From Chlorobiaceae bacterium (GTDB lineage Bacteria; Bacteroidota; Chlorobiia; Chlorobiales; Chlorobiaceae): a stretch of 36,400 bases of DNA. The position numbers and the translations under genes are program-made. Where the stretch lies: contig JAAXXL010000023.1 in the NCBI GenBank assembly GCA_013334485.1, positions 1-36,400 on the forward strand, in the 5' to 3' direction. Shown here in pieces: positions 1 to 24,849 of this stretch. Position 1 is the stretch's first letter; the number at the start of each line of letters is the position of its first letter. Below the pieces are notes generated by a model that made no database searches, was not told the DNA's origin, and saw only the letters and a list, made by a program, of their open reading frames with translations.

Positions 1-2
1 GA

Positions 3-128
3 AAAAATAATGAGTTATTTTTCAGACTCAAGGAATTAGTCAAAGTTGGCAGAAGTCAGGACAATATCGGTTTTCGAGTAGTTCGTTCCAATCATGCCTT
101 TTTCAATGCGCGTAAACGCCCATTATGA
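3..128 (+). pseudogene. C-terminal tail of an upstream FGE/C-type-lectin-like protein, or remnant of one
   Basis: A reading frame is open from the left edge of the window to a TGA at 126-128. Its last part reads DNIGFRVVRSNHAFFNARKR, closely resembling the NDLGFRVVRSS end of the variable protein at 1361-4345. GFRVVR is the usual last strand of the formylglycine-generating-enzyme (FGE)/C-type-lectin fold used by DGR target proteins. The preceding residues (about 3-59) do not look like that fold: no RGGSW or NPxNR pattern is present. The piece may therefore be a second target gene broken near its 3' end, or a fragment carried along with template sequence. The real upstream boundary lies outside the window. 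Confidence 0.4.
61..95 (+). repeat. 35-bp copy of the DGR variable-region 3' end
   Basis: Positions 61-95 align without gaps to 4296-4330, at the end of the variable protein gene, with 31 of 35 identical. The four differences are at 63 (A to G), 66 (A to C), 91 (A to G) and 94 (A to C); in each case the upstream copy has adenine. A 24-bp core (67-90 versus 4302-4325) is identical. Similarity stops at once on the 5' side. Adenine-limited difference is the hallmark of DGR template/variable pairs, so this is the 3' end of either a truncated template repeat or a second variable region. Confidence 0.65.
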
Positions 129-130
129 TG

Positions 131-158
131 CCGTTATTTCAAGGAATAACGGACAGTT
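131..158 (+). terminator. Hairpin with T-run after the truncated repeat
   Basis: CCGTTATT (131-138) and AATAACGG (145-152) form a perfect 8-bp stem with loop TCAAGG, followed by ACAGTTTTTT. It could be a Rho-independent terminator for whatever lies to the left. DGRs also often carry a stem-loop just downstream of the variable region that aids retrohoming, and this one starts 36 bp past the 35-bp repeat. The sequence does not decide between these roles. Confidence 0.5.
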
Positions 159-262
159 TTTTGGGCATGACATCCGGCTTTTTCTCCTGAGGCTTGTTTC
201 CGGTTACCTGCCGGGGCATGCACAAACAGAACAGATAAGGCAGGCTGCTTGAGTAAGTAATT

Positions 263-285
263 GAAAAAGCTGTCTGCTTTTTTTC
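263..285 (+). promoter_or_regulatory. Stem-loop just upstream of the reverse transcriptase start
   Basis: GAAAAAGC (263-270), loop TGTCT, then GCTTTTTTTC (276-285) form an A/T-rich hairpin ending 9 bp before the ATG at 295. It overlaps the place where a ribosome binding site would lie, and no clear Shine-Dalgarno sequence is visible. It could limit translation of the reverse transcriptase or attenuate transcription from the left. This role is inferred from position only. Confidence 0.35.
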
Positions 286-294
286 TTATACAGC

Positions 295-1332
295 ATGAAA
301 CGCAGCAAAAACCTCTTTGACGGCATTATTTCTTTTGAAAATATGCTATCAGCCGCCCACAAAGCGGCAAAAGGGAAGCGTGAAAACCTGTCGGTGCTAT
401 GTTTTTTTGCTCATTTTGAAGAAAATCTCTGGGAAATTATTGCTGAGCTCAAGAATAAAACATATCAGCCCGGTTCATATAAAACCTTCAGCATCTATAA
501 GCCAAAGCCCCGGCAGATCAGTGCGGCACCATTCAGGGACCGGGTTGTACATCATGCCTTGATCGCTTTTGTCGGGCCTATTCTTGAACGTACCTTTATT
601 TTTGATACCTATGCCAACAGAACAGCCAAGGGGACTCACAAGGCAATAGAGCGCTACCAGCACTTCCTGAAAAAATATCAGTACGTTCTGATGTTTGATA
701 TCAGAAAATATTTTCCGTCGATTGATCACAACATCCTCAAAACTTTATTGCGGAGAAAAATATCGTGTGCTGATACGCTGTGGCTGATTGACCTGATTAT
801 TGACAACAGTAACGCGCAAGCGGAGCATAGTCACTATTTCCCGGGAGATACTCTTTTTACTCCCTATGAAAGAAGGCGCGGGTTGCCTATCGGTAACCTC
901 ACCAGCCAGTGGTTTGCCAACTACTATCTGAGCTTCCTTGATCACTATATCAAAGAGCAACTGCGATGCAGAGGGTATGTTCGATACGTTGATGACGGGG
1001 TATTGTTTTCCAATGAAAAATTTCAGTTATGGGCATGGAAAGAGGCAATCGAAGAGTTTTTGCAACAATACCGGTTGATACTCAATCCTCAAAGAACGGA
1101 ACTCTATCCATCAACTGAGGGCAAGTGTTTTCTTGGCCAAAAAGTCTGGCGAACACATCGGATACTTCCGGCAGAGAACGTCAGGCGTGCTAAAAAAAGG
1201 ATTCGTTGCTCCTTGCTTGCAGATCCGGAAACCGTCAGGCAACCTCTTTCAGGCTGGGTTGGTCATGCCCGGCAGGCTGACACCCGCAATCTTTTGCACT
1301 CGCTTGGTTTATTGCCGGAAAGTAGGTGTTAA
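295..1332 (+). CDS. DGR-type reverse transcriptase
   Basis: RNA-directed DNA polymerase (345 aa) of a diversity-generating retroelement. In this family the enzyme copies a template repeat with errors at adenines, and the product replaces the variable region of a target gene. Diagnostic features are the N-terminal KNLFDGIISFENML block, the PFRDRVVHHAL motif, FDIRKYFPSIDH (first catalytic aspartate), IGNLTSQ in place of the retroviral/group II QGxxxSP motif (typical of DGR enzymes), YVRYVDD (catalytic YxDD) and the C-terminal SGWVGHARQADTRNLL thumb segment shared with the Bordetella phage BPP-1 enzyme. Length is normal and no other domain is fused. The target gene starts 28 bp downstream on the same strand, so the two are probably co-transcribed. 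No Avd accessory gene is visible between or after them. The ATG at 295 matches where homologues begin. Confidence 0.93.
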   Translation: MKRSKNLFDGIISFENMLSAAHKAAKGKRENLSVLCFFAHFEENLWEIIAELKNKTYQPGSYKTFSIYKPKPRQISAAPFRDRVVHHALIAFVGPILERTFIFDTYANRTAKGTHKAIERYQHFLKKYQYVLMFDIRKYFPSIDHNILKTLLRRKISCADTLWLIDLIIDNSNAQAEHSHYFPGDTLFTPYERRRGLPIGNLTSQWFANYYLSFLDHYIKEQLRCRGYVRYVDDGVLFSNEKFQLWAWKEAIEEFLQQYRLILNPQRTELYPSTEGKCFLGQKVWRTHRILPAENVRRAKKRIRCSLLADPETVRQPLSGWVGHARQADTRNLLHSLGLLPESRC

Positions 1333-1360
1333 AATCATTAACAAATCATCGAGCAGCGCT

Positions 1361-4345
1361 ATGCGATCTCAAAGCATCACCTTGAAGGCCCGGATTTTTT
1401 GGCTTGTTCTGCTTCTCATTGCAGCCATTCCCGATATCGTTATTGCGAAAGTTGAGGCTGCAAAGTCGCCGGAACCTTCGGTTAATGCGGTGTCAAGGGT
1501 AGTCAATAATGGAAAATCGAATACTCAGGATTCGTTAACGGTGAATAGTGCAGGACAAAAAGCACAAGGAGACAGGAATCCTCACTTCTTTTGGGGGAGT
1601 CTGTCCTTGAGAGAGATTGTGGAATTAATTGCTGTAGCCGTCACCTTATTTATAGCGGTGATCGGCTGGGTGCTCTATTTTCACACGCGAAAAAAGATTC
1701 CGGAGGACGCAGAACAAATAAGAAGAGCGCAGTTGAATGCAGAAAATCAAAATAAAAAGGCAAGCAAAGATGAAGAGAACAAGACAGATTACGACTGTTA
1801 TCAGGCAACATTGAAAGCGGAAATGGGATACATTCGTATGCTTGGTATCCCTGGAGTCAAGAATATTCAGGTCAATCTGAACAAGGATACTTTTGTTCCT
1901 TTGCGACTATGCGAACGGCAGGGTGGAGAAGACCTTTTCAGAAATCAGGATTTTTCTCGGACTGAAACCATCATGTATCCTGATCAAGTTATGAAACGGG
2001 CGTTTAAAAAGCATAGGATGCTGCTTGTTATCGGTGATCCCGGTGCGGGAAAAACAACGCTGCTCAAGTATTATATATTGTGCTGCCTTAGCAAAGATTA
2101 CTATAAAACTCTTGGCTTTTCCGGTACGGTCAACGTCTTTTATCTCCCGCTGCGAGAACTGATTTTACAGGAAAATGGCCATTATGATTCACTCCCGGCA
2201 AGTCTTTCTCTATGGAGTGCAAATCATCATCAGACTATCAAGGAGGCTGTTTTCAACGAGTGGCTGCAAAGTGGAACTTCTCTTGTGTTGCTGGATGGCC
2301 TTGATGAAGTCAGCAACACACAAGAGAGAATTGAAGTATGCAAATGGATTGATAACGCTTGGAGTGGCTTTAATAGATCATATTTTGTGGTAACATCACG
2401 CGCAACAGGGTACAGAAAAGATGAGGGTGTTGAGCTTGCAGCAGACAATGTGCGAGCTGATGTACAGGATTTTATTCCGGAACAGCAGGAACGATTTTTA
2501 GCCAACTGGTTCACTGCTGCGTTTTTGAAAGATCCCTGCGATGAGGGTGTCAGCGAGGTAGAGTTTCAGCGGTTGCAAAAAGAACGGGCTGCTCAACGAA
2601 CCGAAACAATTATCCACCACCTGAACGAAGAAAAGAACAAGGGGTTAAGACAGCTTGCGGCAGTACCCATGATCTTGCAAATAATGGCAATTTTGTGGAA
2701 AGATCAGGATTATATGCCTGAAAGTCGAGTGAAACTTTATGATGCGGCGCTTGACTACCTTCTGGAACTCAGGGATAAACGTAGAAAAATCAGGAATAAT
2801 CGTGGATATATTTCAGCAGCACTTTCTCGTACAGTGCTTGCTCCGGTATCATTCTGGATGCAGGAAGAGCTGAAAACGGATGAGGTAGACAGAGCTGAAA
2901 TGCATGTGGCAATGCAGAAATTGCTTGATAATCTTGATAATCCGCCATCTGCCGAAGAGTTTTGTGATTATCTGGTAAAACGTGCCGGTTTACTGATGGA
3001 GTATGGAACTACATCATATGTATTCAGGCATAAATCTTTCAGGGAATATCTTGCAAGTGTTGAACTTATAAAAAAAGTACTTCGAACGACAGGCTATCTC
3101 GATACTCTGATTTCCGGATTTGGAGAAGATTGGTGGGAAGAGCCGATTAAATTTTTCATTGCTCAATCCGATGCCGAGACATTTAATCTTTTCATGGAAA
3201 AGTTCTTTGACCTTCCGAAGAGTGAATTATTAACACCCAAGCAACTGTTTTTGCTGCTTATCCTGATTGAGGAAGCGCCACTTAAAAAAAATGACGCTCT
3301 AAGCAAAAAGCTGCTCGATCCTGCTACTACAGTCGAGCGTCAGCGGCTGATTCTCGATTGTCTGAAAGCTGTCGGGAAAAGTTCAGCACTTGAGGCAATT
3401 GAGCAATTTAAAAGTCTGGGGTTAGCAAAGAACAAGGATGTTGCAGACAAGGCTGAAGAGGTTATGTTTTTACTACTATCCGGTGTGGAGAATATCCCTG
3501 TTGAGCTTGATGCCTCACGAGTCCCGACTGCGCCTACGATTATCACTTTGAAAAATCGCCAAGTATCGTTCCGCAATCCAAATGAACATAACGCTGAGTA
3601 TATTCTGATTCAGGGTGGAAGCTATCGCTGTTCGGTGACAAAAAAGAGAGAGAAGGTTGCTGATACCTATGTTGCCAAATATCCGATAACCAACAGGCGT
3701 TACCGCTCATTTATTGCTTCTTTGAAATCAGCAGATCAGGCCAATACTGATAATATTTTTAGCATCAAACTTTCCGAGCTTGCCGGTACTATTCCGGGCT
3801 TCCGTACCTATCTTGATGAAGAACCGCTCTTATCAAAAAGGTTTCTTTCCTTTTACGATGAAGATCGAAAATTCGGTGGGGATGATCAACCGGTGGTTGG
3901 AGTGAGCTGGTATGCTGCCCGAGCCTACTGCCTCTGGCTTTCGCTGCTTGAAGGTAATCCAAAGCTTTACACACTGCCGACAGACAAGGAGTGGGAGTTT
4001 GCCGCAGCAGGTAAAGAGGGGCGTAAATATCCCTGGAGTAAAGAGAAGGGAGAGCCAACGTCAAAGCTGGCGAATTATGGGGAAAATGTTGGCGCAACTA
4101 CTCCCGTCGGGAGCTACCCTGAAGGAGCAACACCGGAAGGAGTGTATGATATGGCCGGTAATGTGTGGGAGTGGATGGATAATTTATATGACGAAAAGAA
4201 AGAGTACCGTTCTTTGCGCGGGGGTTCGTGGAGCAGTAAACCTGAAAATCTGCGCTGTTCGGTCCGGAGCTACTACTATCCCGTCAACTGGTTCAACGAT
4301 CTCGGTTTTCGAGTAGTTCGTTCCAGTCCTCTTTCCTCTTCCTGA
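1361..4345 (+). CDS. Membrane-anchored NACHT NTPase with DGR-diversified FGE/C-type-lectin domain
   Basis: Target (variable) protein of the DGR, about 994 aa from the ATG at 1361. Domains in order: a hydrophobic N-terminal segment at roughly residues 10-28 (signal anchor); a second membrane segment at about 80-105 (VELIAVAVTLFIAVIGWVLY); a NACHT NTPase with Walker A GDPGAGKTT near residue 225, Walker B LVLLDGLDEV near 308-317 and the following VVTSRATGYR sensor; a helical region; and, from about residue 745, an FGE-sulfatase/C-type-lectin domain (LIQGGSY, VGVSWYAARAYCLWL, LPTDKEWEFAAAG, YDMAGNVWEW, LRGGSW, GFRVVR). The last ~35 residues are the variable region. NACHT-type (STAND) NTPases with diversified ligand-binding domains are known in DGR-linked conflict systems. 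Here the binding surface may be extracytoplasmic or cytoplasmic; topology is not determined. An in-frame extension back to 1133 lies inside the reverse transcriptase gene and is unlikely to be used. Confidence 0.88.
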   Translation: MRSQSITLKARIFWLVLLLIAAIPDIVIAKVEAAKSPEPSVNAVSRVVNNGKSNTQDSLTVNSAGQKAQGDRNPHFFWGSLSLREIVELIAVAVTLFIAVIGWVLYFHTRKKIPEDAEQIRRAQLNAENQNKKASKDEENKTDYDCYQATLKAEMGYIRMLGIPGVKNIQVNLNKDTFVPLRLCERQGGEDLFRNQDFSRTETIMYPDQVMKRAFKKHRMLLVIGDPGAGKTTLLKYYILCCLSKDYYKTLGFSGTVNVFYLPLRELILQENGHYDSLPASLSLWSANHHQTIKEAVFNEWLQSGTSLVLLDGLDEVSNTQERIEVCKWIDNAWSGFNRSYFVVTSRATGYRKDEGVELAADNVRADVQDFIPEQQERFLANWFTAAFLKDPCDEGVSEVEFQRLQKERAAQRTETIIHHLNEEKNKGLRQLAAVPMILQIMAILWKDQDYMPESRVKLYDAALDYLLELRDKRRKIRNNRGYISAALSRTVLAPVSFWMQEELKTDEVDRAEMHVAMQKLLDNLDNPPSAEEFCDYLVKRAGLLMEYGTTSYVFRHKSFREYLASVELIKKVLRTTGYLDTLISGFGEDWWEEPIKFFIAQSDAETFNLFMEKFFDLPKSELLTPKQLFLLLILIEEAPLKKNDALSKKLLDPATTVERQRLILDCLKAVGKSSALEAIEQFKSLGLAKNKDVADKAEEVMFLLLSGVENIPVELDASRVPTAPTIITLKNRQVSFRNPNEHNAEYILIQGGSYRCSVTKKREKVADTYVAKYPITNRRYRSFIASLKSADQANTDNIFSIKLSELAGTIPGFRTYLDEEPLLSKRFLSFYDEDRKFGGDDQPVVGVSWYAARAYCLWLSLLEGNPKLYTLPTDKEWEFAAAGKEGRKYPWSKEKGEPTSKLANYGENVGATTPVGSYPEGATPEGVYDMAGNVWEWMDNLYDEKKEYRSLRGGSWSSKPENLRCSVRSYYYPVNWFNDLGFRVVRSSPLSSS
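4229..4330 (+). repeat. DGR variable region (VR)
   Basis: This covers the last codons of the target gene from SWSSKPENLRCS to GFRVVRSSP. The codons for residues expected to vary (AGC, AGT, GTC, AGC, TAC, TAC, TAT, GTC, TTC, GAT) all convert to AAC or AAT if their first two positions are restored to adenine. TGG likewise converts to AGG and CTC to ATC. That gives the usual N-rich template pattern (NPxNR, NNNIGFRVV). Residues in conserved strands have no such property. The 3' boundary is the segment shared with 61-95. Exact VR limits cannot be set without the template. Confidence 0.75.
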
Positions 4346-4399
4346 TTTTCTGATCATCTGTTCTCTGGAACTCTGAAAAGGAAGTTATTTTCACGGAAT

Positions 4400-4429
4400 G
4401 GTCGCCGAAGGCGGCCTGGATTTTGTTTT
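4400..4429 (+). terminator. GC-rich hairpin after the variable protein gene
   Basis: GGTCGCC (4400-4406) pairs with GGCGGCC (4410-4416), with one G-U pair and a GAA loop, followed by TGGATTTTGTTTT. It lies 54 bp after the stop codon. It may terminate the DGR transcript or act as the stem-loop that many DGRs keep downstream of the variable region. The rest of 4346-4589 is AT-rich and holds no gene that can be supported. Confidence 0.45.
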
Positions 4430-4589
4430 GCAGATGTCGGGAAGTTTTTTTACCTGGCAAACAATGTTCTTACTGCAAAAGAGAGTCGTTTGCGAACTTT
4501 TACTAAAAATAAAATTGTTTACTATACAAGAGTTAAGGTTCTTAAGCGAAAATTTTTGAGTTAACATTTTGCAGGAGGGCGCAATTATC

Positions 4590-4799
4590 ATGCAACTCCA
4601 TTTAAGTGATGAAAAAACCAAAGAACTTCTTTCGGAAGTTGTAGTAGATCTTTTAAAGACGAAAAAAAGCCTTTTCTATGACATTGTAATAGAGGCTTTG
4701 GAGGATGTTGGTCTGGCAAATGCTATTGCCGAAGGGAGAAAAAGTGAATTTGTCTCAGAGGATGAAATTTTTTCTATTCTTGATGGCAATGCAAGGTGA
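4590..4799 (+). CDS. Small antitoxin of a RelE/ParE-type toxin-antitoxin pair
   Basis: A 69-aa acidic, helical protein with no diagnostic catalytic motif. The ATG at 4590 is preceded by GGAGGG (4574-4579), a strong ribosome binding site; an in-frame TTG at 4569 lies upstream of that site. Its 3' end overlaps the toxin start by 4 bp (GTGA), the usual arrangement for translational coupling of antitoxin then toxin. Sequences such as LLSEVVVDLLKTKKSLFYDIVIEALEDVGLA resemble uncharacterised antitoxins that sit before RelE-like toxins. The role is inferred mainly from this context. Confidence 0.7.
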   Translation: MQLHLSDEKTKELLSEVVVDLLKTKKSLFYDIVIEALEDVGLANAIAEGRKSEFVSEDEIFSILDGNAR

Positions 4800-5062
4800 A
4801 AGTTGTTTTTGAACATGGATTTGCAAAGGAGCTTCAAAAGCTGCGGGATAACAGGTTGTTGGCAAAAATCAGGGAAATTATTCTTGAGTGCAAGGAAGCT
4901 GACAGCTTGACCGAAATCAGAAATCTGAAAAAGCTTCAAGGTTACGATACCTTTTATCGTATTCGTGTGGGGGATTACCGCATAGGGATTGAGTTTTCTG
5001 CGAATGAACTTGTTTTTACCCGCATTTTGCACAGGAAAGAGATTTATAAATATTTTCCGTGA
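4796..5062 (+). CDS. RelE/ParE superfamily toxin
   Basis: An 88-aa basic protein with the RelE fold pattern: N-terminal strand and helices (FAKELQKLRDNRLLAKI), then NLKKLQGYDTFYRIRVGDYRIGIE and a terminal VFTRILHRKEIYKYFP strand and tail. RelE family members cleave ribosome-bound mRNA, while ParE members inhibit gyrase; the sequence does not decide which applies. The conserved R-x-R-x-GDYR and ILHRKEIY segments are typical and intact. Translation starts at GTG 4796, overlapping the antitoxin stop. The gene ends next to the remnant of a second, convergent toxin gene. Confidence 0.8.
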   Translation: MKVVFEHGFAKELQKLRDNRLLAKIREIILECKEADSLTEIRNLKKLQGYDTFYRIRVGDYRIGIEFSANELVFTRILHRKEIYKYFP

Positions 5063-5186
5063 CTACTCCCATGGGACATAGATAAAAATCCTTTTCATCA
5101 CCACGGTCAATCCACGCCATAACCTTTGGTGAGGGGAGCGGTTTGAGCAGTTCAGATATCACACAGGTATCCAAAAGGTATTTCAC
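5063..5186 (-). pseudogene. Truncated PIN-domain toxin (VapC/FitB-like)
   Basis: From a GTG at 5186-5184, which overlaps the stop of the upstream antitoxin by 4 bp, the minus strand encodes VKYLLDTCVISELLKPLPSP followed by KVMAWIDRGDEKDFYL. This is the start of a PIN-domain ribonuclease with the first catalytic aspartate (LLDTCVISEL). Similarity is lost after about 40 residues, around 5065-5075. The frame then runs through the end of the convergent RelE-like gene to a stop at 5016-5018. About two thirds of a normal PIN protein of ~130 aa, including the remaining acidic residues, is missing. The toxin is therefore almost certainly inactive. Confidence 0.72.
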
Positions 5187-5443
5187 AGTAGCACCTCACT
5201 CCTGACAGTATCTTTTGAGCGCTGGAGGTCAATTCCAGCTTCCCTGAGAGGCGAATTATGAAAAAAGCCTGAAAGAGGTTCAGTTGGTTTGGCGGCATTC
5301 ACCGATCTGTTGTATTCGTCAAATGAGAGTACAACAGCAGCAGGTGTGCCGTGCAGGGTAATGGTTTGTGGCCCGTCATGAAGCGCGTTTCTGACAACTT
5401 CGCTCAAATGATTTTTGGCCTGTTGCAGTTGCCATGTTTTCAT
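5183..5443 (-). CDS. Phd/YefM-type antitoxin
   Basis: An 86-aa protein starting MKTWQLQQAKNHLSEVVRNA, the classic Phd/YefM N-terminus that binds DNA as a dimer. It is followed by PQTITLHGTPAAVVLSFDEY, a strand-loop-strand typical of the family, and a C-terminal toxin-wrapping tail. The ATG at 5443 has GGAGAG just upstream. It overlaps the PIN toxin remnant by 4 bp. A perfect 40-bp palindrome begins 22 bp upstream of the start and is the likely autoregulatory operator. With the toxin truncated, the antitoxin may persist as an orphan repressor or an anti-addiction factor. Confidence 0.85.
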   Translation of the reverse strand: MKTWQLQQAKNHLSEVVRNALHDGPQTITLHGTPAAVVLSFDEYNRSVNAAKPTEPLSGFFHNSPLREAGIDLQRSKDTVRSEVLL

Positions 5444-5465
5444 CTGTTTCTCTCCAATAATAACA

Positions 5466-5505
5466 TTGGCTATATTCTGGCTATCGATAGCCAGAATATA
5501 GCCAA
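5466..5505. promoter_or_regulatory. Perfect 40-bp palindrome, probable antitoxin operator
   Basis: Every base from 5466 to 5505 is the reverse complement of its partner around the centre 5485/5486 (ATCGAT). Each arm has two copies of a GGCTAT motif 11 bp apart, TTGGCTATATTCTGGCTATC in the left arm. It lies directly upstream of the Phd-type antitoxin. Phd/YefM proteins bind palindromes and, with toxin, cooperatively bind neighbouring sites, so four half-sites would suit two dimers. Confidence 0.7.
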
Positions 5506-5570
5506 CAACAGGCTCGTTTTCAAATTCGTTTCCAGGGACCTCTTCGTGAGAGTAAATGTTATTGCATTAT

Positions 5571-5777: not shown

Positions 5778-6143
5778 ATGCAGGAACATCGAGCTGAAGG
5801 TTGTCAGGAGGAGTGTTTTCATCCGGATGTGGTGGAGCGTCTTCGCACAGAGATGCCGGGGGAGCCGCTGCAGGAGGAGCTTGCACAGCTTTTCAAGGTG
5901 CTTGGCGATCACACTCGGATCCGCATCCTCAATGCGCTTTGCCTCTCGGAGCTCTGCGTTTGTGATCTTACCGCGCTGCTTGGTATGAATCAGTCGGCAG
6001 TTTCGCATCAGTTGAGGGTGCTGAGGGATGCCAAGCTGGTGAAGTCGCGCAAGCTGGGCAAGAATGTGCTCTATACTCTTGACGACAGCCATGTTTCAAC
6101 GCTTATACAGACTGGTTCCGAACACATCAAGGAAGGGAAGTGA
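5778..6143 (+). CDS. ArsR/SmtB-family metal sensor repressor (CadC-like)
   Basis: A 121-aa winged-helix repressor that releases DNA on metal binding. The recognition helix region is LCVCDLTALLGMNQSAVSHQ, followed by LRDAKLVKSRKLGKNVLYTL. Both known sensor sites of the CadC/SmtB branch are complete: the alpha-3N thiolate set C9, C13, C60 and C62 (ELCVC), which binds Cd/Pb/Zn in CadC, and the alpha-5 set D103, H105, H116 and E119, which binds Zn in SmtB. The ATG at 5778 is the natural start because the N-terminal cysteines are included. It probably represses itself and the permease 80 bp downstream, since each has an ATGA-N8-TCAT operator. The inducing metal cannot be fixed from sequence. Confidence 0.9.
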   Translation: MQEHRAEGCQEECFHPDVVERLRTEMPGEPLQEELAQLFKVLGDHTRIRILNALCLSELCVCDLTALLGMNQSAVSHQLRVLRDAKLVKSRKLGKNVLYTLDDSHVSTLIQTGSEHIKEGK

Positions 6144-6168
6144 TCAGGCTCTTTTTTTTTTGCTTTAA

Positions 6169-6188
6169 ATATGAACATATAATCATGT
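6169..6188 (+). promoter_or_regulatory. Second metal-regulator operator, before the permease
   Basis: ATATGA (6169-6174), 8-nt spacer, TCATGT (6183-6188) repeats the ATGA-N8-TCAT layout of the operator at 5595-5618. A perfect -10 hexamer TATAAT (6178-6183) lies inside it, so bound repressor would cover the promoter. The -35 region is only a T-run. Confidence 0.55.
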
Positions 6189-6222
6189 GAGAATATGTTG
6201 TTGTTAAACAGGTTGTACCGTT

Positions 6223-7305
6223 ATGAATGAAATTATTTCTGTTCTCTCCAGAGTGCTTCTCGCCTCGTGGAGTGTCCTGGTGGATTCAGCTCCCTTTGTG
6301 TTGCTCGGCTTTTTTATTGCCGGAGTGCTCAAGGCTTTTGTTCCCGACAATTTTATTGCGACCCATCTTGGGGGCGGAGGCGTCTCAAGCATATTCAAGG
6401 CTGCGGTATTCGGTATTCCCATTCCCCTGTGCAGTTGCGGAGTGCTTCCGGCAGCAGCAGGCTTGAAGAAACAGGGATCCGGGAAGGGGCCTGTTGCAGC
6501 TTTTCTTATTTCGACGCCGGAAACCGGGGTGGATTCCATTGCGGTCTCCTGGGCGCTACTCGATCCGCTGATGACGGTTATTCGCCCTGTTGTTGCCCTT
6601 TTTATGGCTGTTGCAACCGGTATTGCGGTTTCATTTTCCGAAAAGCATTCCGCCAAAACTGACGATTCTCCTGCCGCCGAACAGTTTGAGGAAAAAGCCT
6701 GCGCATCCTCATGCTGCTGCGGTCATAAACAGCAGGAAAAACTGACGGCTGCCGGAAAATTCAGGGAGGGTATGAGCTTTGCCTTTGGCGATCTGTTGAA
6801 AGATGTCGGGCTCTGGCTTTTGATCGGTATTCTGCTTTCAGGAATGATCTCTGTTTTTGTTTCAACGGAGATGGTAAGCCGATATTTGTCGAATGAATAT
6901 CTTTCGATGCTCGTGATGTTTATCGTTTCTGTGCCTCTCTACGTCTGTGCCACAGCTTCGACCCCGATTGTTGCGGCACTTGCCCTGAAGGGTATATCAC
7001 CGGGAGCAGCGATGGTGTTTCTCCTGGCAGGCCCGGCAACAAATGCAGCATCACTTCCGGTGATATTCAGAATACTTGGCAGAAAATCTGCTCTCATCTA
7101 TCTCGTGAGCATTGTCATCATCTCTCTCATTGGGGGTGTACTTGTTAATGACCTCTATGGCTATCTCGGCTACGATATCACGCATTGGGTCAGCAAAGAG
7201 TCTCACGAGGAGGCTGGCATTGTTTCCTCTGCTGCATCGGTTCTGCTTGTCATACTGATTGTAAAGTCATTGTTACCCGAAAAACGCATTCGCAATCCCC
7301 ATTAA
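6223..7305 (+). CDS. SO_0444-family Cu/Zn efflux permease (ArsP/DUF318-like)
   Basis: A 360-aa inner-membrane permease of the DUF318/ArsP superfamily, with about eight to ten hydrophobic segments in two halves. The signature PIPLCSCGVLPAAAGLKKQG followed by SGKGPVAAFLISTPETGVDS in the first half, and the matching PLYVCATASTPIVAALALKG with FLLAGPATNAAS in the second, place it in the group named after SO_0444. These are annotated as copper/zinc exporters. The linker between halves has a metal-binding-like cluster, KACASSCCCGHKQQ. It follows a CadC-like repressor and has its own operator, fitting metal-induced expression. The ATG at 6223 is chosen because the frame begins there with a membrane segment. 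Arsenical export is the main alternative, but the cysteine pattern and regulator favour a divalent or soft metal. Confidence 0.85.
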   Translation: MNEIISVLSRVLLASWSVLVDSAPFVLLGFFIAGVLKAFVPDNFIATHLGGGGVSSIFKAAVFGIPIPLCSCGVLPAAAGLKKQGSGKGPVAAFLISTPETGVDSIAVSWALLDPLMTVIRPVVALFMAVATGIAVSFSEKHSAKTDDSPAAEQFEEKACASSCCCGHKQQEKLTAAGKFREGMSFAFGDLLKDVGLWLLIGILLSGMISVFVSTEMVSRYLSNEYLSMLVMFIVSVPLYVCATASTPIVAALALKGISPGAAMVFLLAGPATNAASLPVIFRILGRKSALIYLVSIVIISLIGGVLVNDLYGYLGYDITHWVSKESHEEAGIVSSAASVLLVILIVKSLLPEKRIRNPH

Positions 7306-7347
7306 GAGTGTAATTCAGCATGTTTACGCTATATTGAGGATGCGTTT

Positions 7348-8013
7348 ATGTTTATGGATATGATAATTTTTATGATTCAGCCTATGAGTATTTTGTTCCG
7401 TTCAGTTGCAAGGATAGTGCTTCCTGCCGTTTTTGTTATCTCTTTTTCTACTTCCGCTTTTGCCATTGATGGTTCCCTGAATGAAAATGATGCAGAGATG
7501 CTTCAGGCTTCGCGTGGAGCAGGGCGGAGTTCACGGGTATCGCTTTCGGATGACGAAGCTCAGTTGTACCGCCTGATTATGGATTACCGCCGGAGTGAGG
7601 GGAAACCTGCGATTCCTGTTTCACCAAACCTTTCGCGTGTTGCCAGGCTGCATGTGCGTGACCTTGAGGCACATCCCCCTTCGGGCTCCTGCAATCTGCA
7701 CAGTTGGTCGGAATATGGGCCATGGAAGCCGGTCTGTTACAGTGGCGGAGAGAGCGTGCAGCGGATGTGGAGTAAACCGAGGGAGCTGACCTCCTATTCC
7801 GGAAATGGTTATGAAGTTGCTGCCTACACGAGCAGCGGCAGGATGTTTCCCGATCATGCGTTGTCGCTCTGGGAAGGATCGTCAGCGCATGATGCGGTAA
7901 TCACCAACTCCGGAAAGTGGGATCGGCTTCAGTGGAATGCGGTCGGGGTTGCCATCTCCGGCTCATATGCCGTTGTCTGGTTCGGAGAGGAGTCCGACAG
8001 ATCGGGCAGGTAA
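7348..8013 (+). CDS. Secreted CAP-domain (SCP-like) protein
   Basis: A 221-aa exported protein. A signal peptide (SVARIVLPAVFVISFSTSAFA) is followed by a CAP/SCP domain: EAQLYRLIMDYRRSEGKPAI, LSRVARLHVRDLEAHPPSG, then a cysteine-containing NLHSW segment, AVGVAISGSYAVVWFGE and conserved H and E residues of the CAP cavity. Bacterial CAP proteins are extracytoplasmic and of mostly unknown role. GAGG lies 8 nt before ATG 7348; the in-frame ATG at 7384 would give a cleaner signal peptide. The stop is 6 bp from the end of the convergent copper ATPase gene. No link to metal handling is visible beyond position. Confidence 0.82.
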   Translation: MFMDMIIFMIQPMSILFRSVARIVLPAVFVISFSTSAFAIDGSLNENDAEMLQASRGAGRSSRVSLSDDEAQLYRLIMDYRRSEGKPAIPVSPNLSRVARLHVRDLEAHPPSGSCNLHSWSEYGPWKPVCYSGGESVQRMWSKPRELTSYSGNGYEVAAYTSSGRMFPDHALSLWEGSSAHDAVITNSGKWDRLQWNAVGVAISGSYAVVWFGEESDRSGR

Positions 8014-8019
8014 GTGGAG

Positions 8020-10302
8020 TCACTTCAGTTTTTTTGCCTTCAGGCGCAGTGAGTTGCTCACAACCGAGACGCTGCTGCCAGCCATGGCAAGCCCTGAAAA
8101 TACCGGGTTGAGAAAGATGCCCCAGAAGGGGTAGAGCGCACCGGCGGCAAGCGGAATACCGATGATGTTGTAGATAAAGGCCCAGAAGAGGTTCTGGCGG
8201 ATAACCCTCATGGTTGCGCGCGAGAGGGTTATAGCCTGCGCAACCTTGTTGATATCCCCCTTAAGCAGGGTTATACCGGCTGACTCTATGGCAATATCGG
8301 TTCCCGTGGCCATGGCAATGCCAACATCTGCCTGTGCAAGGGCCGGAGCATCATTGATGCCGTCACCAGCCATGGCAACCTTTCTCCCTTCAGCCTGAAG
8401 CGCCCTGATTTTTGCCGCCTTTTCTGTTGGGAGCACCTCGGCAATCACCTCCAGAATACCGACCTGACCAGCCATGTAGTTTGCCGCAGCACGGTTGTCG
8501 CCAGTCAGCATGATGACCTTCAACCCCTTTTTATGCAGTGCCGATACGGCGGCCTTTGCCTCTGTTTTTACGGTGTCACTGAGGGCAATCAGCCCTTTGC
8601 AGATACCGTTCGCTTCAATAATAACGACGGTCTTTCCCTGTTGCTGAAGTCGTTTAACCTCCGCTATTCTGCTTTCAGTTTCAAGAGGCTTGCGGATGGT
8701 AACCGGCACTCCGGAAATAAGGGCCGAGACACCCATTCCCTCAAGCGCGTTAAAATTCTCAATGTCGCTGAGTGTGAGCTTCAGACTCTTTGCCTCGTCA
8801 AGAATAGCCTCAGCCAGAGGGTGCTCGGAGCGATTTTCAACACTGGCAGCGATTTGCAGCAGCGACTCTGGTGTTGACTCTTCAGAGAGCGGTGTGATAT
8901 CTGTGACTTTCGGGCTGCCGGTGGTAATGGTACCGGTTTTGTCAAACACAACAGTATCGACCGAACTGAGTTTTTCAAGACTTTGGGCGTTGCGGATAAG
9001 GATGCCGTACTCAGCCCCTTTGCCGATTCCGACGATGATTGCTGTCGGGGTTGCCAGCCCGAGCGCACAGGGGCAGGCGATCACCAGTATTCCGACAAGG
9101 CCGGAAATGGCGTAGGAGAGGGCGACTGAAAAACCGAGGTATGATGAGCCCACAGTGATCCAGATCAGGAAGGTTGCAGCCGCAATAATGAGCACTGCGG
9201 GCACAAAGACCCCTGCAATTTTATCGGCTATATCCTGAATGGGCGCTTTTGAACCCTGCGCCTCTTCAACCATCCTGATGATACGGGCGAGGACTGTGTC
9301 GGAGCCGACATTTGATGCCCTGAAGGTGAATGCCCCCTGTTTGTTGAAGGTGCCGCCGATTACAGGATCCCCGGCCTTTTTATCAACAGGAACGGACTCT
9401 CCGGTCACCATCGATTCATCAATTGCGGAGAAGCCTGCAATGATGATGCCGTCAACCGGGAGTATTGCTCCGGGCTTGATAATAACCGTGTCGCCTCTTT
9501 TGACCTCTTCTGCCGGAATCTCGATCTCTTTTCCCTCTCTCTCGACGAGGGCGGTTTTGGCCTGCAGGCCGATCAGCTTTTCAATAGCTTCACCGGTTTT
9601 CATCCTTGAGCGAGCCTCAAGGTATTTGCCGAGCAGAACAAAACCGATTACGACAATGGTAACGTCGAAGTAGGTGTAGTCCGGCACGCGCAGCAGCTCC
9701 CGAAGAGAGGGGATAAGCGTGATAAGCGCACTGTAAACGTATGCCGTGAGCGTGCCGATGCCGATGAGGGTGTCCATGCTTGCAGCACCGCTTCGTAAAA
9801 ACATGACAATACCGTGAAGGAATGGCGCGCCGATCCGGAATACAAACCAGGTGGCCAGAACCATGGAGATGATGTTGAACAGCTCCATCGGTATCGGCAG
9901 GTTTGGCAGAGTGTCAATAAACCTTGAGCCGATATCCCACATCATGAGTATAAAGACAAGCAGGGCTATCGGCAGGGCAAACTGCACCTTTGCTTTTTGT
10001 TCAAGAAGCTCGTGCAGCTTCTCCTCCTTGAGGCGGATGGCTCCTGAAGCTGCGTTTTTCAGCGGTTCGCTTGCGCTTGCTGCTCCCTGTTCGTCAGCAA
10101 TGGCGTAGCCGTACTTGCTGACGGCTTCGTTCAGTGCTTCAAGTGGAAGGCTTTCATGGTCGAATGCAATGGTAACCTTCTCTGTAGCAAGATTGACATG
10201 GGCCTGGGTTATACCCTCAACCTTGGAGAGCTTTTTTGTGATGATTGCTGCACAGCTTGCGCAGTGCATCCCTTTCACGTTGTATGTACCTGTCGTCGTC
10301 AT
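8020..10302 (-). CDS. copA: Copper-translocating P1B-type ATPase
   Basis: A 760-aa ATP-driven Cu(+) exporter of the inner membrane. There is an N-terminal HMA metal-binding domain with GMHCASC (C14, C17), then membrane helices. The actuator domain has TGES. The ion channel motif CPCALGLATP starts near residue 410 and the phosphorylation site DKTGT at D454. The ATP-binding region has HP (SEHPLAEAIL) and GDGINDAPALAQADVG. The last helices contain YN (FIYNIIGIPLAAG) and MAGSS, which are Cu(+)-specific ligands of the P1B-1 group. It is the last gene of a three-gene minus-strand operon. Its ATG overlaps the stop of the DUF305 gene by 4 bp, so translation is coupled. Confidence 0.95.
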   Translation of the reverse strand: MTTTGTYNVKGMHCASCAAIITKKLSKVEGITQAHVNLATEKVTIAFDHESLPLEALNEAVSKYGYAIADEQGAASASEPLKNAASGAIRLKEEKLHELLEQKAKVQFALPIALLVFILMMWDIGSRFIDTLPNLPIPMELFNIISMVLATWFVFRIGAPFLHGIVMFLRSGAASMDTLIGIGTLTAYVYSALITLIPSLRELLRVPDYTYFDVTIVVIGFVLLGKYLEARSRMKTGEAIEKLIGLQAKTALVEREGKEIEIPAEEVKRGDTVIIKPGAILPVDGIIIAGFSAIDESMVTGESVPVDKKAGDPVIGGTFNKQGAFTFRASNVGSDTVLARIIRMVEEAQGSKAPIQDIADKIAGVFVPAVLIIAAATFLIWITVGSSYLGFSVALSYAISGLVGILVIACPCALGLATPTAIIVGIGKGAEYGILIRNAQSLEKLSSVDTVVFDKTGTITTGSPKVTDITPLSEESTPESLLQIAASVENRSEHPLAEAILDEAKSLKLTLSDIENFNALEGMGVSALISGVPVTIRKPLETESRIAEVKRLQQQGKTVVIIEANGICKGLIALSDTVKTEAKAAVSALHKKGLKVIMLTGDNRAAANYMAGQVGILEVIAEVLPTEKAAKIRALQAEGRKVAMAGDGINDAPALAQADVGIAMATGTDIAIESAGITLLKGDINKVAQAITLSRATMRVIRQNLFWAFIYNIIGIPLAAGALYPFWGIFLNPVFSGLAMAGSSVSVVSNSLRLKAKKLK

Positions 10303-21644: not shown

Positions 21645-21680
21645 GGCGGTCACTGTTTTCATGCAGTGCCCGTCTTTTTT
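21645..21680 (+). terminator. Rho-independent terminator after ppa
   Basis: GGCGGTCACTG (21645-21655) pairs with CAGTGCCCGTC (21664-21674) with one mismatch and one G-U pair, followed by six T. It also shows that an open frame back to 21661 is not the true start of the next gene. Confidence 0.85.
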
Positions 21681-21792
21681 GCGTTTGTGGGTAGAATTTC
21701 CATTGCGAGATGGATGGCAGAATAATTGCCGTAGTTCGTTATCTTTTCTTCAGAGATTCCGGCAGCATTCACCGCCCTTTAAACAGCGTTCC

Positions 21793-24700
21793 ATGACCAT
21801 TCAGGAGTATATCGACACTATCAACAAACGGTACAAGGCCGGTAATGCAACGGAGCATAGCTATCGTGGGGATTTGCAGAATCTGCTCAAGTCATTGCTT
21901 CCACAGATTGATGTTACAAACGAGCCCCAGCGGATTGCATGCGGTGCTCCTGATTATATCCTGACCCGAAAGGAGATTCCCGTTGGCTATATCGAAGCAA
22001 AGGATATTGGGAAGTCACTTGATAACAAACTCTACAAAGAGCAGTTTGCCCGTTATCGGAGTTCCCTGTCAAATCTGATTATAACTGATTACATCGAGTT
22101 TCGGTTTTACCGGGATGGTGCGTTATTAACTTCACTTGTTCTCGCCGATGTACAAACAGGCAAAATTGTCGCCAAACCTGAAAACTTTCAGGCGTTCACT
22201 GATCTGATTCAAGAGTTTGGCAGATACAAAGGCCAAACGATCCGGTCAGCTTCGAAGCTCTCAAAGATGATGGCAGCCAAAGCCCGGTTACTCGCGGATG
22301 TGATAGAAAAAGCGGTTTCAAATACTGCCAGTGAAACGAATAATATTCTGCAAGAAGCTAACAACACGCTCAAAGACCAGATGGAAGCCTTCAGGCAGAT
22401 TCTTATACATGACATTACTCCCAAGCAGTTTGCCGATATTTACGCCCAAACAATAGCCTACGGCATGTTTGCTGCCCGTCTTCACGACCCGACTCTTGAA
22501 GATTTCAACCGGAGAGAGGCTGCCGAATTAATTCCCAGAACAAACCCGTTTCTCAGGAAGCTGTTTCAATATATCGCAGGCTATGATCTTGACAGCAGGG
22601 TTGTCTGGATTGTTGATGCTCTGGCTGATGTCTTCAAGGCAACTGATGTATCTGCATTGCTCAAAGATTTTGGAAAGGCTACACAGCAGCAAGACCCGAT
22701 TATTCATTTTTACGAGACGTTTCTCGCAGAGTATGATCCCGCGCTGCGGAAAAGCAGGGGAGTCTGGTATACCCCTGAACCTGTTGTGAATTTTATTGTC
22801 CGGGCTGTTGATGAGATTCTGAAAACCGAGTTCGGCCTGAAGGATGGTTTGGCTGATACCAGCAAGACCACTGTTGACATTAAAAGAGCAACGACCGACA
22901 AGCGTTCAAAAGATGGCTATACCACCCAGCAGGTTGAAGTTCACAAAGTACAGATGCTTGACCCGGCTACCGGTACAGGCACTTTTTTAGCCGAGATCAT
23001 CAAACACATCTACAAGCAGTTTGAAGGTCAGGAAGGTATCTGGAGCAATTACGTCGAGAACCATCTGATTCCAAGGCTGAACGGATTTGAAATTCTGATG
23101 GCTTCCTACGCAATGGCCCATCTGAAGCTCGACCTGCTTCTTGCCGAAACCGGATATAAGCCGACCATTGATCAACGCTTCCGGGTATATCTGACCAATT
23201 CACTCGAAGAGCATCATCCTGAAACCGGAACCCTTTTTGCAAACTGGCTTTCACAGGAAGCGAATGAAGCTAATTATATAAAGCGAGATACACCGGTGAT
23301 GGTTGTTTTGGGAAATCCGCCCTATAGTGGTCATTCTTCCAACAAAGGGGAGTGGATTGAGAAACTTTTGGAAGATTACAAGCAGGAACCCGGAGGAGGC
23401 AAGCTGAAGGAGAAAAATCCGAAATGGCTGAATGACGACTATGTAAAGTTTATTCGATATGGGCAGCATTTTGTTGAGAAAAATGGCGAAGGGGTTCTTG
23501 CCTTTATCAACAATCACAGCTTTCTGGATAACCCCACATTCCGAGGGATGAGGTGGTATCTGCTCTCTACATTCGACAAGATTTATATTCTTGATCTCCA
23601 TGGTAACTCGAAGAAAAAGGAGAGTTGCCCCGATGGCTCAGTGGATAAAAACGTTTTTGATATTCAGCAAGGGGTGAGCATCAATCTGTTTGTGAAGACG
23701 GGAAAAAAGAAAAATGGAGAGCTGGCTGAAGTGCTGCATTATGACCTTTACGGGGAAAGAACATTCAAATACGATTTTCTCAGGAAGACTTCTCTTTCAA
23801 ACATTAGTTTCACCCACCTTTTACCTGCGGCGCAACAATATTTTTTTACAGAGAAAAATTTTGTGGACCAAAATAATTATGAACAGGGATTTTTAGTAAA
23901 TGACTTATTCCTTCAAAACAGTATGGGAATAACGAGCGGAGATGATATTAAGTATGTAAGTTTCTCGAAACAATATCTGAGAGACATATTTGGTGATAAT
24001 GATCTTGAAAAGATAAGTTATAGACCGTTCGATTCGCGCTATTTACTCTTTGATCACAAGCGGCTTGCTCGATCAAGAACTGTGTTTATGAGTCATTTGC
24101 TGAGCAATAATATAGCTATGTCTTTAATTAGGAGATCCCGGTCTGATGATTTTATTGGCCCATTTGTTGTTGCTCATATCGTTGATAAGTGTATTTCCTC
24201 TTCTCTGGATAACGCGAATATTTTCCCGTTATATCTATATCCACAAAAAGAAAATCAGATTACTACTGATAGCCAACAACGGAGAATCCCAAATCTCAAC
24301 AGAGCAATTGTCAATAAGATAGCAGTTTCAATCGGTTTAACCTTTACTCTGGAAAAAGAATCAACGGCAGGTACCTTTGCTCCGATAGATATCCTTGACT
24401 ACATCTATGCGGTACTCCACTCGCCTAACTATCGTGAGAAATACAAGGAATTTCTGAAGATTGATTTCCCAAGAGTGCCTTATCCAAAAGATCAGCAAAC
24501 CTTCTGGCAACTTGTAGCTCTTGGAGGCGAACTGCGACAGCTCCATCTCCTCGAAAGTTCGAGCGTTGAGCAGCGCTTAAGCAGCTATCCGATCAGTGGA
24601 GATAATCTTGTTGGTAAGGTGAAATATGAGGATGGGAAGGTTTACATGAATGAAACCCAGTACTTCGATGGAGTTCCTTCTGTTGCATGGGAGTTTTACA

Positions 24701-24849
24701 TCGGAGGATATCAGCCCGCGCAAAAATGGCTGAAAGACCGGAAAGGCAGGGAACTTAGCTTTGAGGATGTCCGGCATTACCAACGCATCATAGTGGCATT
24801 GGTTGAGACGGACAGGATTAGGAATGAGATTACTTCCATAGTAATTTAA
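21793..24849 (+). CDS. Type ISP-like restriction-modification enzyme (nuclease + N6-adenine methyltransferase)
   Basis: A 1018-aa single-chain restriction-modification protein. The N-terminal PD-(D/E)XK nuclease region has D54, E68 and K70 (GAPDYIL...YIEAKDIG) after the family mark ATEHSYRGDLQNLL. A helical connector (~140-330) leads to the methyltransferase, with SAM motif I LDPATGTGTFL near residue 390 and catalytic motif IV GNPPYSGHSS near 507. The C-terminal half (~560-1018) matches the ISP-type target-recognition region in style (YRPFDSRYLLFDHK, FLKIDFPRVPYPKD). Helicase motifs, present in LlaGI/LlaBIII enzymes, are absent, so it is a shorter form. The ATG at 21793 follows a terminator ending at 21680. 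It opens a defence-like island before fumC. Confidence 0.88.
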   Translation: MTIQEYIDTINKRYKAGNATEHSYRGDLQNLLKSLLPQIDVTNEPQRIACGAPDYILTRKEIPVGYIEAKDIGKSLDNKLYKEQFARYRSSLSNLIITDYIEFRFYRDGALLTSLVLADVQTGKIVAKPENFQAFTDLIQEFGRYKGQTIRSASKLSKMMAAKARLLADVIEKAVSNTASETNNILQEANNTLKDQMEAFRQILIHDITPKQFADIYAQTIAYGMFAARLHDPTLEDFNRREAAELIPRTNPFLRKLFQYIAGYDLDSRVVWIVDALADVFKATDVSALLKDFGKATQQQDPIIHFYETFLAEYDPALRKSRGVWYTPEPVVNFIVRAVDEILKTEFGLKDGLADTSKTTVDIKRATTDKRSKDGYTTQQVEVHKVQMLDPATGTGTFLAEIIKHIYKQFEGQEGIWSNYVENHLIPRLNGFEILMASYAMAHLKLDLLLAETGYKPTIDQRFRVYLTNSLEEHHPETGTLFANWLSQEANEANYIKRDTPVMVVLGNPPYSGHSSNKGEWIEKLLEDYKQEPGGGKLKEKNPKWLNDDYVKFIRYGQHFVEKNGEGVLAFINNHSFLDNPTFRGMRWYLLSTFDKIYILDLHGNSKKKESCPDGSVDKNVFDIQQGVSINLFVKTGKKKNGELAEVLHYDLYGERTFKYDFLRKTSLSNISFTHLLPAAQQYFFTEKNFVDQNNYEQGFLVNDLFLQNSMGITSGDDIKYVSFSKQYLRDIFGDNDLEKISYRPFDSRYLLFDHKRLARSRTVFMSHLLSNNIAMSLIRRSRSDDFIGPFVVAHIVDKCISSSLDNANIFPLYLYPQKENQITTDSQQRRIPNLNRAIVNKIAVSIGLTFTLEKESTAGTFAPIDILDYIYAVLHSPNYREKYKEFLKIDFPRVPYPKDQQTFWQLVALGGELRQLHLLESSSVEQRLSSYPISGDNLVGKVKYEDGKVYMNETQYFDGVPSVAWEFYIGGYQPAQKWLKDRKGRELSFEDVRHYQRIIVALVETDRIRNEITSIVI

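What the first reader, a model, noticed from the sequence alone, without database searches (positions are those of the whole stretch)
295..4345. DGR that diversifies a membrane-anchored NACHT NTPase
The reverse transcriptase has the DGR-specific IGNLTSQ motif. It sits directly before a NACHT (STAND) NTPase with two N-terminal membrane segments and a C-type-lectin/FGE variable domain. NACHT-DGR combinations are known from large-scale surveys of conflict systems. Here the receptor also has an N-terminal membrane anchor and no visible enzymatic effector. That raises the question of what the NTPase signals to, and whether the diversified tip faces outside or inside the cell.
Basis: partly seen in the sequence, partly recalled or inferred. 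Interest (0 to 1): 0.78.

Follow-up and report, generated by a model that had tools for sequence, protein, structure and literature searches.

The report
Hypermutating membrane immune-receptor cassette, now split
A green sulfur bacterium carries a mutation-making reverse-transcriptase cassette that has rewritten the recognition tips of NLR-like receptors, one of them tethered to the membrane, but in this genome a mobile DNA element has inserted between the cassette's template and its priming RNA, which probably stops further rewriting.

Summary
RT 295-1332 is a diversity-generating retroelement (DGR) reverse transcriptase: best solved match is DGR RT 8ub7, and it splits from group-II-type RTs at 100/99. 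The template repeat (TR) is not in the window; it ends contig C122, after an Avd gene and a second NACHT receptor. All 12 TR-to-VR differences in the window gene are at template adenines; over eight VRs in four genomes it is 120 of 120. A sister Chlorobium has the locus intact, and its orthologous VRs differ only at template adenines (14/14, 20/20). Here an IS1634-type element sits between TR and its spacer RNA, with a 17-19 bp duplication, so the DGR is predicted to be frozen. The receptor has a signal-peptide-like segment, one further transmembrane helix and stalk, an NLR-like NACHT and an FGE/C-type-lectin tip, which should face the cytoplasm. In relatives the N-terminal slot holds a transmembrane module, a phosphoesterase or a DUF4062 (TIR-like NADase) domain, and sister genomes differ by such exchanges. 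Membrane-anchored DGR-NACHT proteins, domain shuffling and transposon damage are already described in Thiohalocapsa. A well-resolved new member of a known kind.

The parts
1..61 (+). Right end of an IS1634-type insertion sequence; terminal inverted repeat about 46-61
   Evidence: Inverse of the end found on C122 and C89; related elements encode an IS1634 transposase
62..78 (+). Right copy of the 17-19 bp target duplication (tail of TR)
   Evidence: Also ends the left flank on C122; single copy in sister genome G015
79..294 (+). Remaining TR tail and spacer (Sp) RNA between TR and RT
   Evidence: Identical to G015; conserved and structured in 8 genomes, 10 pairs with two-sided compensation; z -2.1
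295..1332 (+). DGR reverse transcriptase
1361..4345 (+). Membrane-anchored NACHT-FGE receptor, DGR target
1373..1453 (+). Signal-peptide-like hydrophobic segment (residues 5-31)
   Evidence: hydropathy; A-x-A-like motif conserved in 9 homologues
1625..1681 (+). Transmembrane helix (residues 89-107), continuing into a helical stalk to residue 155
2015..2518 (+). NACHT domain (Walker A GDPGAGKTT, Walker B LVLLDGLDE)
   Evidence: Pfam PF05729; invariant in 22 homologues; fold near NLRC4/NLRP3
3593..4342 (+). FGE / C-type-lectin domain
   Evidence: Pfam PF03781; TvpA 2y3c Z 17.6
4207..4328 (+). Variable repeat (VR); residues 958-981 altered
   Evidence: 12 of 12 core substitutions at template adenines

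Best explanation
This is the right half of a chromosomal DGR locus of a Chlorobium (Chlorobiaceae). The full order is receptor 1 (phosphoesterase-NACHT-FGE), Avd, TR, [insertion sequence], Sp, RT, receptor 2 (membrane-anchored NACHT-FGE, in the window). SHOWN: template-adenine-only replacement has altered the C-type-lectin tips of both receptors, and the tips have diverged in this way since this genome split from its sister species. INFERRED: the receptors are NLR-like antiphage sensors; a ligand in the cytoplasm binds the diversified tip, the NACHT module oligomerises with ATP, and the N-terminal module acts. In the window protein that module is a signal-peptide-like segment, a short extracytoplasmic tail and one transmembrane helix with a stalk. 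It fills the slot that holds a phosphoesterase or a DUF4062 NADase in close relatives, so clustering of the helices probably perturbs the membrane, or gathers a partner there. INFERRED: the insertion sequence separates the template from the Sp RNA that primes cDNA, so in this genome the repertoire is now frozen.
For: A-only substitutions in 8 VRs of 4 genomes, 120/120; interspecies VR differences 14/14 and 20/20 at template adenines, next to a 299/300 identical flank. Avd passes the NCBIfam DGR-Avd cut-off. RT nearest 8ub7 and on the DGR side of the tree. NACHT intact and NLR-like; tip shares the fold of DGR proteins TvpA, TaqVP and Mtd. Positive charge after the second helix in nine homologues. 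Same NACHT cluster carries transmembrane, phosphoesterase and DUF4062 N-termini; DUF4062 reported as antiphage NADase (PMC13174449). Insertion: inverted ends, 17-19 bp duplication, intact site in G015; role of Sp in priming (PMC12875486).
Against: No antiphage activity has been tested for any of these receptors. The contig join C122-C102 is inferred from synteny and the duplication, not sequenced through; the insertion element itself is not assembled. A mixed population with intact alleles is possible. Topology rests on hydropathy and charge only. The membrane module may be an anchor and not an effector.
Confidence: 0.7

Rival explanations
1. The transmembrane segment is only an anchor: it places the receptor at the inner membrane, where phage DNA and proteins enter, and the damage is done by a separate recruited partner.
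For: No enzymatic domain in the N-terminus. Effector recruitment through adaptor domains is proposed for other DGR-STAND systems (PMC10907252).
Against: No conserved partner gene was identified beside the receptor here; next downstream is a RelB/ParE-like pair. In relatives the same slot holds enzymes.
Confidence: 0.35
2. The receptors are not defence sensors but recognise kin, partner cells or environmental ligands, or regulate physiology.
For: Many cellular DGR targets are thought to bind extracellular substrates or cells (Roux et al., PMC8144416). Some Chlorobium live in consortia (general knowledge).
Against: NACHT plus DUF4062 or phosphoesterase modules match antiphage proteins, and the tip is predicted to be cytoplasmic.
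Confidence: 0.15
3. The DGR is still active: the insertion is present only in part of the population, or contigs C122 and C102 do not join here.
For: Thiohalocapsa shows intact and transposon-damaged variants side by side (PMC10907252). The two contigs are not joined in the assembly.
Against: Both flanks carry the expected element end and the same duplicated 17-19 bp, and together equal the intact G015 site. Only one TR was found in the genome.
Confidence: 0.15
4. The diversified tip is in the periplasm or outside the cell.
For: A signal-peptide-like N-terminus is present. Doré et al. predict a periplasmic NACHT-CLec for one Thiohalocapsa target (PMC10907252).
Against: A second helix follows, with net positive charge on its C-terminal side in nine homologues. 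NACHT needs ATP. Close NACHT relatives lack any membrane segment at the N-terminus.
Confidence: 0.06

Closest known systems
Thiohalocapsa PB-PSB1 DGR loci, especially DGR 3 (NACHT-CLec targets) (Doré et al. 2024, PMC10907252)
   Same: DGR with two NACHT-C-type-lectin targets, membrane segments in some, N-terminal shuffling, transposons damaging RT or TR
   Different: Green sulfur bacterium; the insertion lies exactly between TR and Sp; an intact sister copy exists; phosphoesterase/DUF4062/membrane modules exchange between orthologues. RT clade membership was not tested against their tree
Bordetella phage BPP-1 DGR (mtd-avd-TR-brt)
   Same: Order target-Avd-TR-RT; RT and Avd families; adenine-directed change; C-type-lectin target
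   Different: Cellular receptors with NACHT in place of a tail protein; a second target lies downstream of RT
Bacterial NACHT (bNACHT) and Avs antiphage STAND proteins (PMC12169576)
   Same: N-terminal module, central NACHT, C-terminal sensor; Avs4 appears among fold matches
   Different: Sensor is a DGR-diversified FGE domain; N-terminus is a membrane module; no defence test
DUF4062 TIR-like NADases (Swarozyc; TEP1) (preprint PMC13174449)
   Same: DUF4062 next to NACHT, as in the paralogues on C70 and C108 and in G015 receptor 1
   Different: The window receptor itself lacks DUF4062; the Pfam hits in the paralogues are below the curated cut-off

Membership tests
Diversity-generating retroelement | RT of the DGR clade with (I/L)GxxxSQ | tested here: met
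   GLPIGNLTSQ; 8ub7 2e-56; 100/99 split from QGxxxSP RTs
Diversity-generating retroelement | TR/VR pair differing only at template adenines | tested here: met
   12/12 for the window VR, 120/120 over eight VRs
Diversity-generating retroelement | Accessory protein Avd | tested here: met
   On C122; NF033474 98 bits, cut-off 80
Diversity-generating retroelement | VR in a C-type-lectin fold | tested here: met
   TvpA Z 17.6, rmsd 3.3, 205 aligned; also TaqVP and Mtd. VR itself has low pLDDT
Diversity-generating retroelement | TR continuous with Sp and RT | tested here: not met
   Interrupted in this genome by an insertion element; continuous in G015. A broken copy of a DGR, not a different element
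Diversity-generating retroelement | Ongoing mutagenic retrohoming | not testable with these tools
   No read data; past activity is shown by interspecies VRs
Bacterial NACHT / STAND antiphage receptor | NACHT with intact nucleotide-binding motifs | tested here: met
   Walker residues invariant in 22 homologues; NLRC4/NLRP3 fold
Bacterial NACHT / STAND antiphage receptor | N-terminal effector and C-terminal sensor | tested here: inconclusive
   Sensor-like tip present; N-terminus is a membrane module of unknown action, in the slot that relatives fill with enzymes
Bacterial NACHT / STAND antiphage receptor | Protection against phage | not testable with these tools
   needs experiment
IS1634 family element | Terminal inverted repeats, long variable target duplication, IS1634 transposase | tested here: inconclusive
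   Repeats and 17-19 bp duplication seen. Transposase seen only in related elements of other Chlorobium genomes (NF033559 351 bits); the copy here is not assembled
DGR clade 5D of Roux/Doré | RT position in that reference tree | not tested
   reference sequences not at hand

The most novel reading that the evidence does not exclude
Green sulfur bacteria run an NLR-like repertoire with two independent layers of diversification: DGR hypermutation of the cytoplasmic sensor tip, and exchange of whole effector modules (membrane helix, phosphoesterase, NADase) in front of near-identical NACHT cores. The membrane module is itself an effector, and in this lineage a transposon has frozen the current set of tips.
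Probability: 0.35. Interest if true: 0.65.

Novelty: new member of a known kind. Interest (0 to 1): 0.47.

Why it matters
DGR-diversified STAND receptors are candidate prokaryotic counterparts of somatically diversified immune receptors, and in the literature read here their defence role is still untested. This locus offers an intact copy (G015) and a naturally interrupted copy with near-identical Avd, TR and spacer and a 95% identical RT, a built-in control for whether the system still diversifies and whether that matters. The exchange of an NADase-type for a phosphoesterase module in front of a 92% identical NACHT domain makes it directly testable that the N-terminus is the interchangeable effector, and it places the membrane module in the same slot.

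Tried and rejected
TR inside the window: rejected; repeat D1 (61-93 vs 4296-4328) is only the 3' tail of TR next to the insertion element. The other NACHT-FGE paralogues (two on C108, one on C70) as targets of this TR: not supported, since they differ at many non-adenine positions, and a pattern search found no second TR in the genome; they look like orphans of another or lost template. Rfam match to the spacer RNA: none. Full-length AF2 model for the FGE tip: too poor there (pLDDT about 40-50), so the domain was modelled alone. A check of the outgroup RTs by NCBIfam failed on a frame error and was not repeated; the outgroup rests on the QGxxxSP motif. Phage-borne DGR: not favoured, phage RTs are all under 60% identical and the locus is syntenic in Chlorobium genomes. 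The 100% identity of TR-Sp between G000 and G015 was not used as evidence of constraint, because the first half of the RT gene is also about 99% identical. Three of the RTs meant for the tree were dropped or badly placed because the frame used was wrong or the sequence short.

Full report
WHAT WAS CLAIMED AND WHAT IS THERE. Both genes are real. RT 295-1332 matches RVT_1 and phrog_1423 (2e-112); its best solved relative is the RT of 8ub7 (2e-56), far ahead of group II intron RTs (3e-17). In a 28-row tree the RTs with the (I/L)GxxxSQ motif, including BPP-1 brt and the window, are separated from those with QGxxxSP by a branch with 100/99 support. ORF 1361-4345 has NACHT at residues 219-386 and FGE-sulfatase at 761-987.

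THE TEMPLATE. The window begins at a contig end (C102:1). A direct repeat (61-93 / 4296-4328) is only the tail of the template. The TR lies at C122:27286-27395, after an Avd gene (NCBIfam DivGenRetAVD and Pfam bAvd) and another receptor (phosphoesterase-NACHT-FGE). Against this TR the window VR has 12 substitutions in 106 nt and the C122 VR has 15, all at template adenines. The same holds in other genomes: G015 15 and 21, G003 13 and 15, G027 11 and 18, each against its own TR; in all 120 of 120. The template is 29% adenine.

BETWEEN-SPECIES TEST. G015, the genome with the closest RT (95% identical), has the same locus on one contig. Its VRs differ from the orthologous VRs here at 14 and 20 positions, every one a template adenine. 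The 300 nt before the C122 VR are 299/300 identical. It shows that the cassette worked after the two lineages separated.

THE INSERTION. C122 runs from TR directly into (T)CCTGACTTCTGCCAA..., and the window begins with the inverted copy ...TTGGCAGAAGTCAGG(A) followed by a repeat of the last 17-19 bp of the left flank. The same left end recurs on C89 beside unrelated DNA. G015 has the uninterrupted site, identical to both flanks. Related elements in other Chlorobium genomes carry an IS1634-family transposase, and two elements of that family are known to make long, variable duplications of 8-514 bp (PMC2266710). In the studied DGR, the spacer between TR and RT recruits RT-Avd and supplies the adenine that primes cDNA into TR (PMC12875486). 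Here the spacer is a conserved, structured RNA (81% mean column identity over 8 genomes, 10 pairs with two-sided compensation; z -2.1). Separating TR from it should stop cDNA synthesis. That both VRs still match TR at every non-adenine position fits a recent loss. This step is inferred, and a mixed population is possible.

THE RECEPTOR. Nine transmembrane-type receptors in Chlorobium share a hydrophobic N-terminus that reads like a signal peptide, a low-complexity linker and a second helix with positive charge on its C-terminal side. The model shows one helix from residue 83 to 155, so the transmembrane helix continues into a stalk. This places NACHT and the variable tip in the cytoplasm. Whether the first segment is cleaved is not known. 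The NACHT core resembles NLRC4 and NLRP3. The FGE domain modelled alone (pTM 0.85) matches PvdO and the DGR protein TvpA (Z 17.6, rmsd 3.3, 205 aligned), and also TaqVP and Mtd. The altered residues lie at 958-981.

MODULE EXCHANGE. Receptor 1 here and in G015 has a 92% identical NACHT region and an 86% identical FGE domain, but the N-terminus is a calcineurin-like phosphoesterase here and a DUF4062-like domain in G015, while the upstream flank is 92% identical at the nucleotide level up to the first codons, MAVT. Receptor 2 (window) shares RT, about the first 37 residues and the second half of the FGE domain with G015, but the middle differs (37% in NACHT against 75% in FGE). Grouping 28 receptors by NACHT similarity puts transmembrane, phosphoesterase and DUF4062 N-termini in one cluster, and transmembrane, DUF4062 and a fourth N-terminus (IFIGHSDD) in another. 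The direction of the exchanges is not known. DUF4062 was recently reported as a TIR-like NADase with antiphage activity and lies next to NACHT in human TEP1 (preprint PMC13174449). The phosphoesterase N-terminus resembles that of NCBIfam DS8_antiphage, below that model's full-length cut-off. By position, the membrane module is the effector or its anchor; which of the two is not decided.

COMPARISON WITH WHAT IS KNOWN. Doré et al. 2024 describe DGR-diversified NACHT-CLec receptors in Thiohalocapsa, some membrane-anchored, with tips predicted in the cytoplasm or the periplasm, N-terminal shuffling, and transposons damaging RT or TR (PMC10907252). Kaur et al. 2020 place DGRs and FGE-type domains in conflict systems (PMC7159879). 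So the kind is known. What is added is a clean Chlorobium case with an intact sister copy, adenine-only change shown between species, a defined insertion between template and spacer, and an exchange of effector-slot modules between orthologues. Ten of 37 genomes of the genus held carry an RT of this type at 77% identity or more, counting this one.

VERDICT. DGR identity is near certain. The membrane-anchored, cytoplasm-facing receptor is well supported. Immune function is probable, by architecture and by the N-terminal enzymes of the paralogues. Present inactivity of the cassette is likely, not proven.

Noticed in passing
237-284: A terminator-like hairpin followed by a run of T closes the spacer RNA just before the RT start codon and is conserved in 8 Chlorobium genomes. 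It may release the Avd-TR-Sp RNA separately and lower RT expression.
   Followed up: partly
L016 (C108:8000-20000), 2187-5285 and 5918-9043; L017 (C70:5000-10976), 2532-5537 minus strand: Three further DUF4062-like NACHT-FGE receptors whose VRs do not fit the TR with adenine-only changes; no second TR found. Orphans of a lost or unassembled template.
   Followed up: partly
L016 5439-6005 (C108): An open frame joining the first half of an Avd to the last part of an FGE domain with a degenerate VR; probably a recombination remnant.
   Followed up: no
L072 1441-4500, L075 6034-9153, L077 6068-9160: A fourth N-terminal module (near IFIGHSDDASAE), without a Pfam match when one was scanned, sits in the same slot of NACHT-FGE receptors.
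   Followed up: partly
L063 10201-11607: A short target without NACHT: an FGE domain behind a weak match to CAP12/PC-TIR (E 0.008, below cut-off).
   Followed up: no
4590-5062: RelB-like antitoxin and ParE-like toxin pair directly downstream of the receptor.
   Followed up: no
21661-24849: A 1062-aa protein that reads like a single-chain restriction-modification enzyme (methyltransferase motif NPPY) (sequence; not scanned).
   Followed up: no
L024-L039: Several Chlorobium genomes carry additional, only 37-40% identical, DGR-like RTs beside this family, so DGR families coexist in the genus.
   Followed up: no
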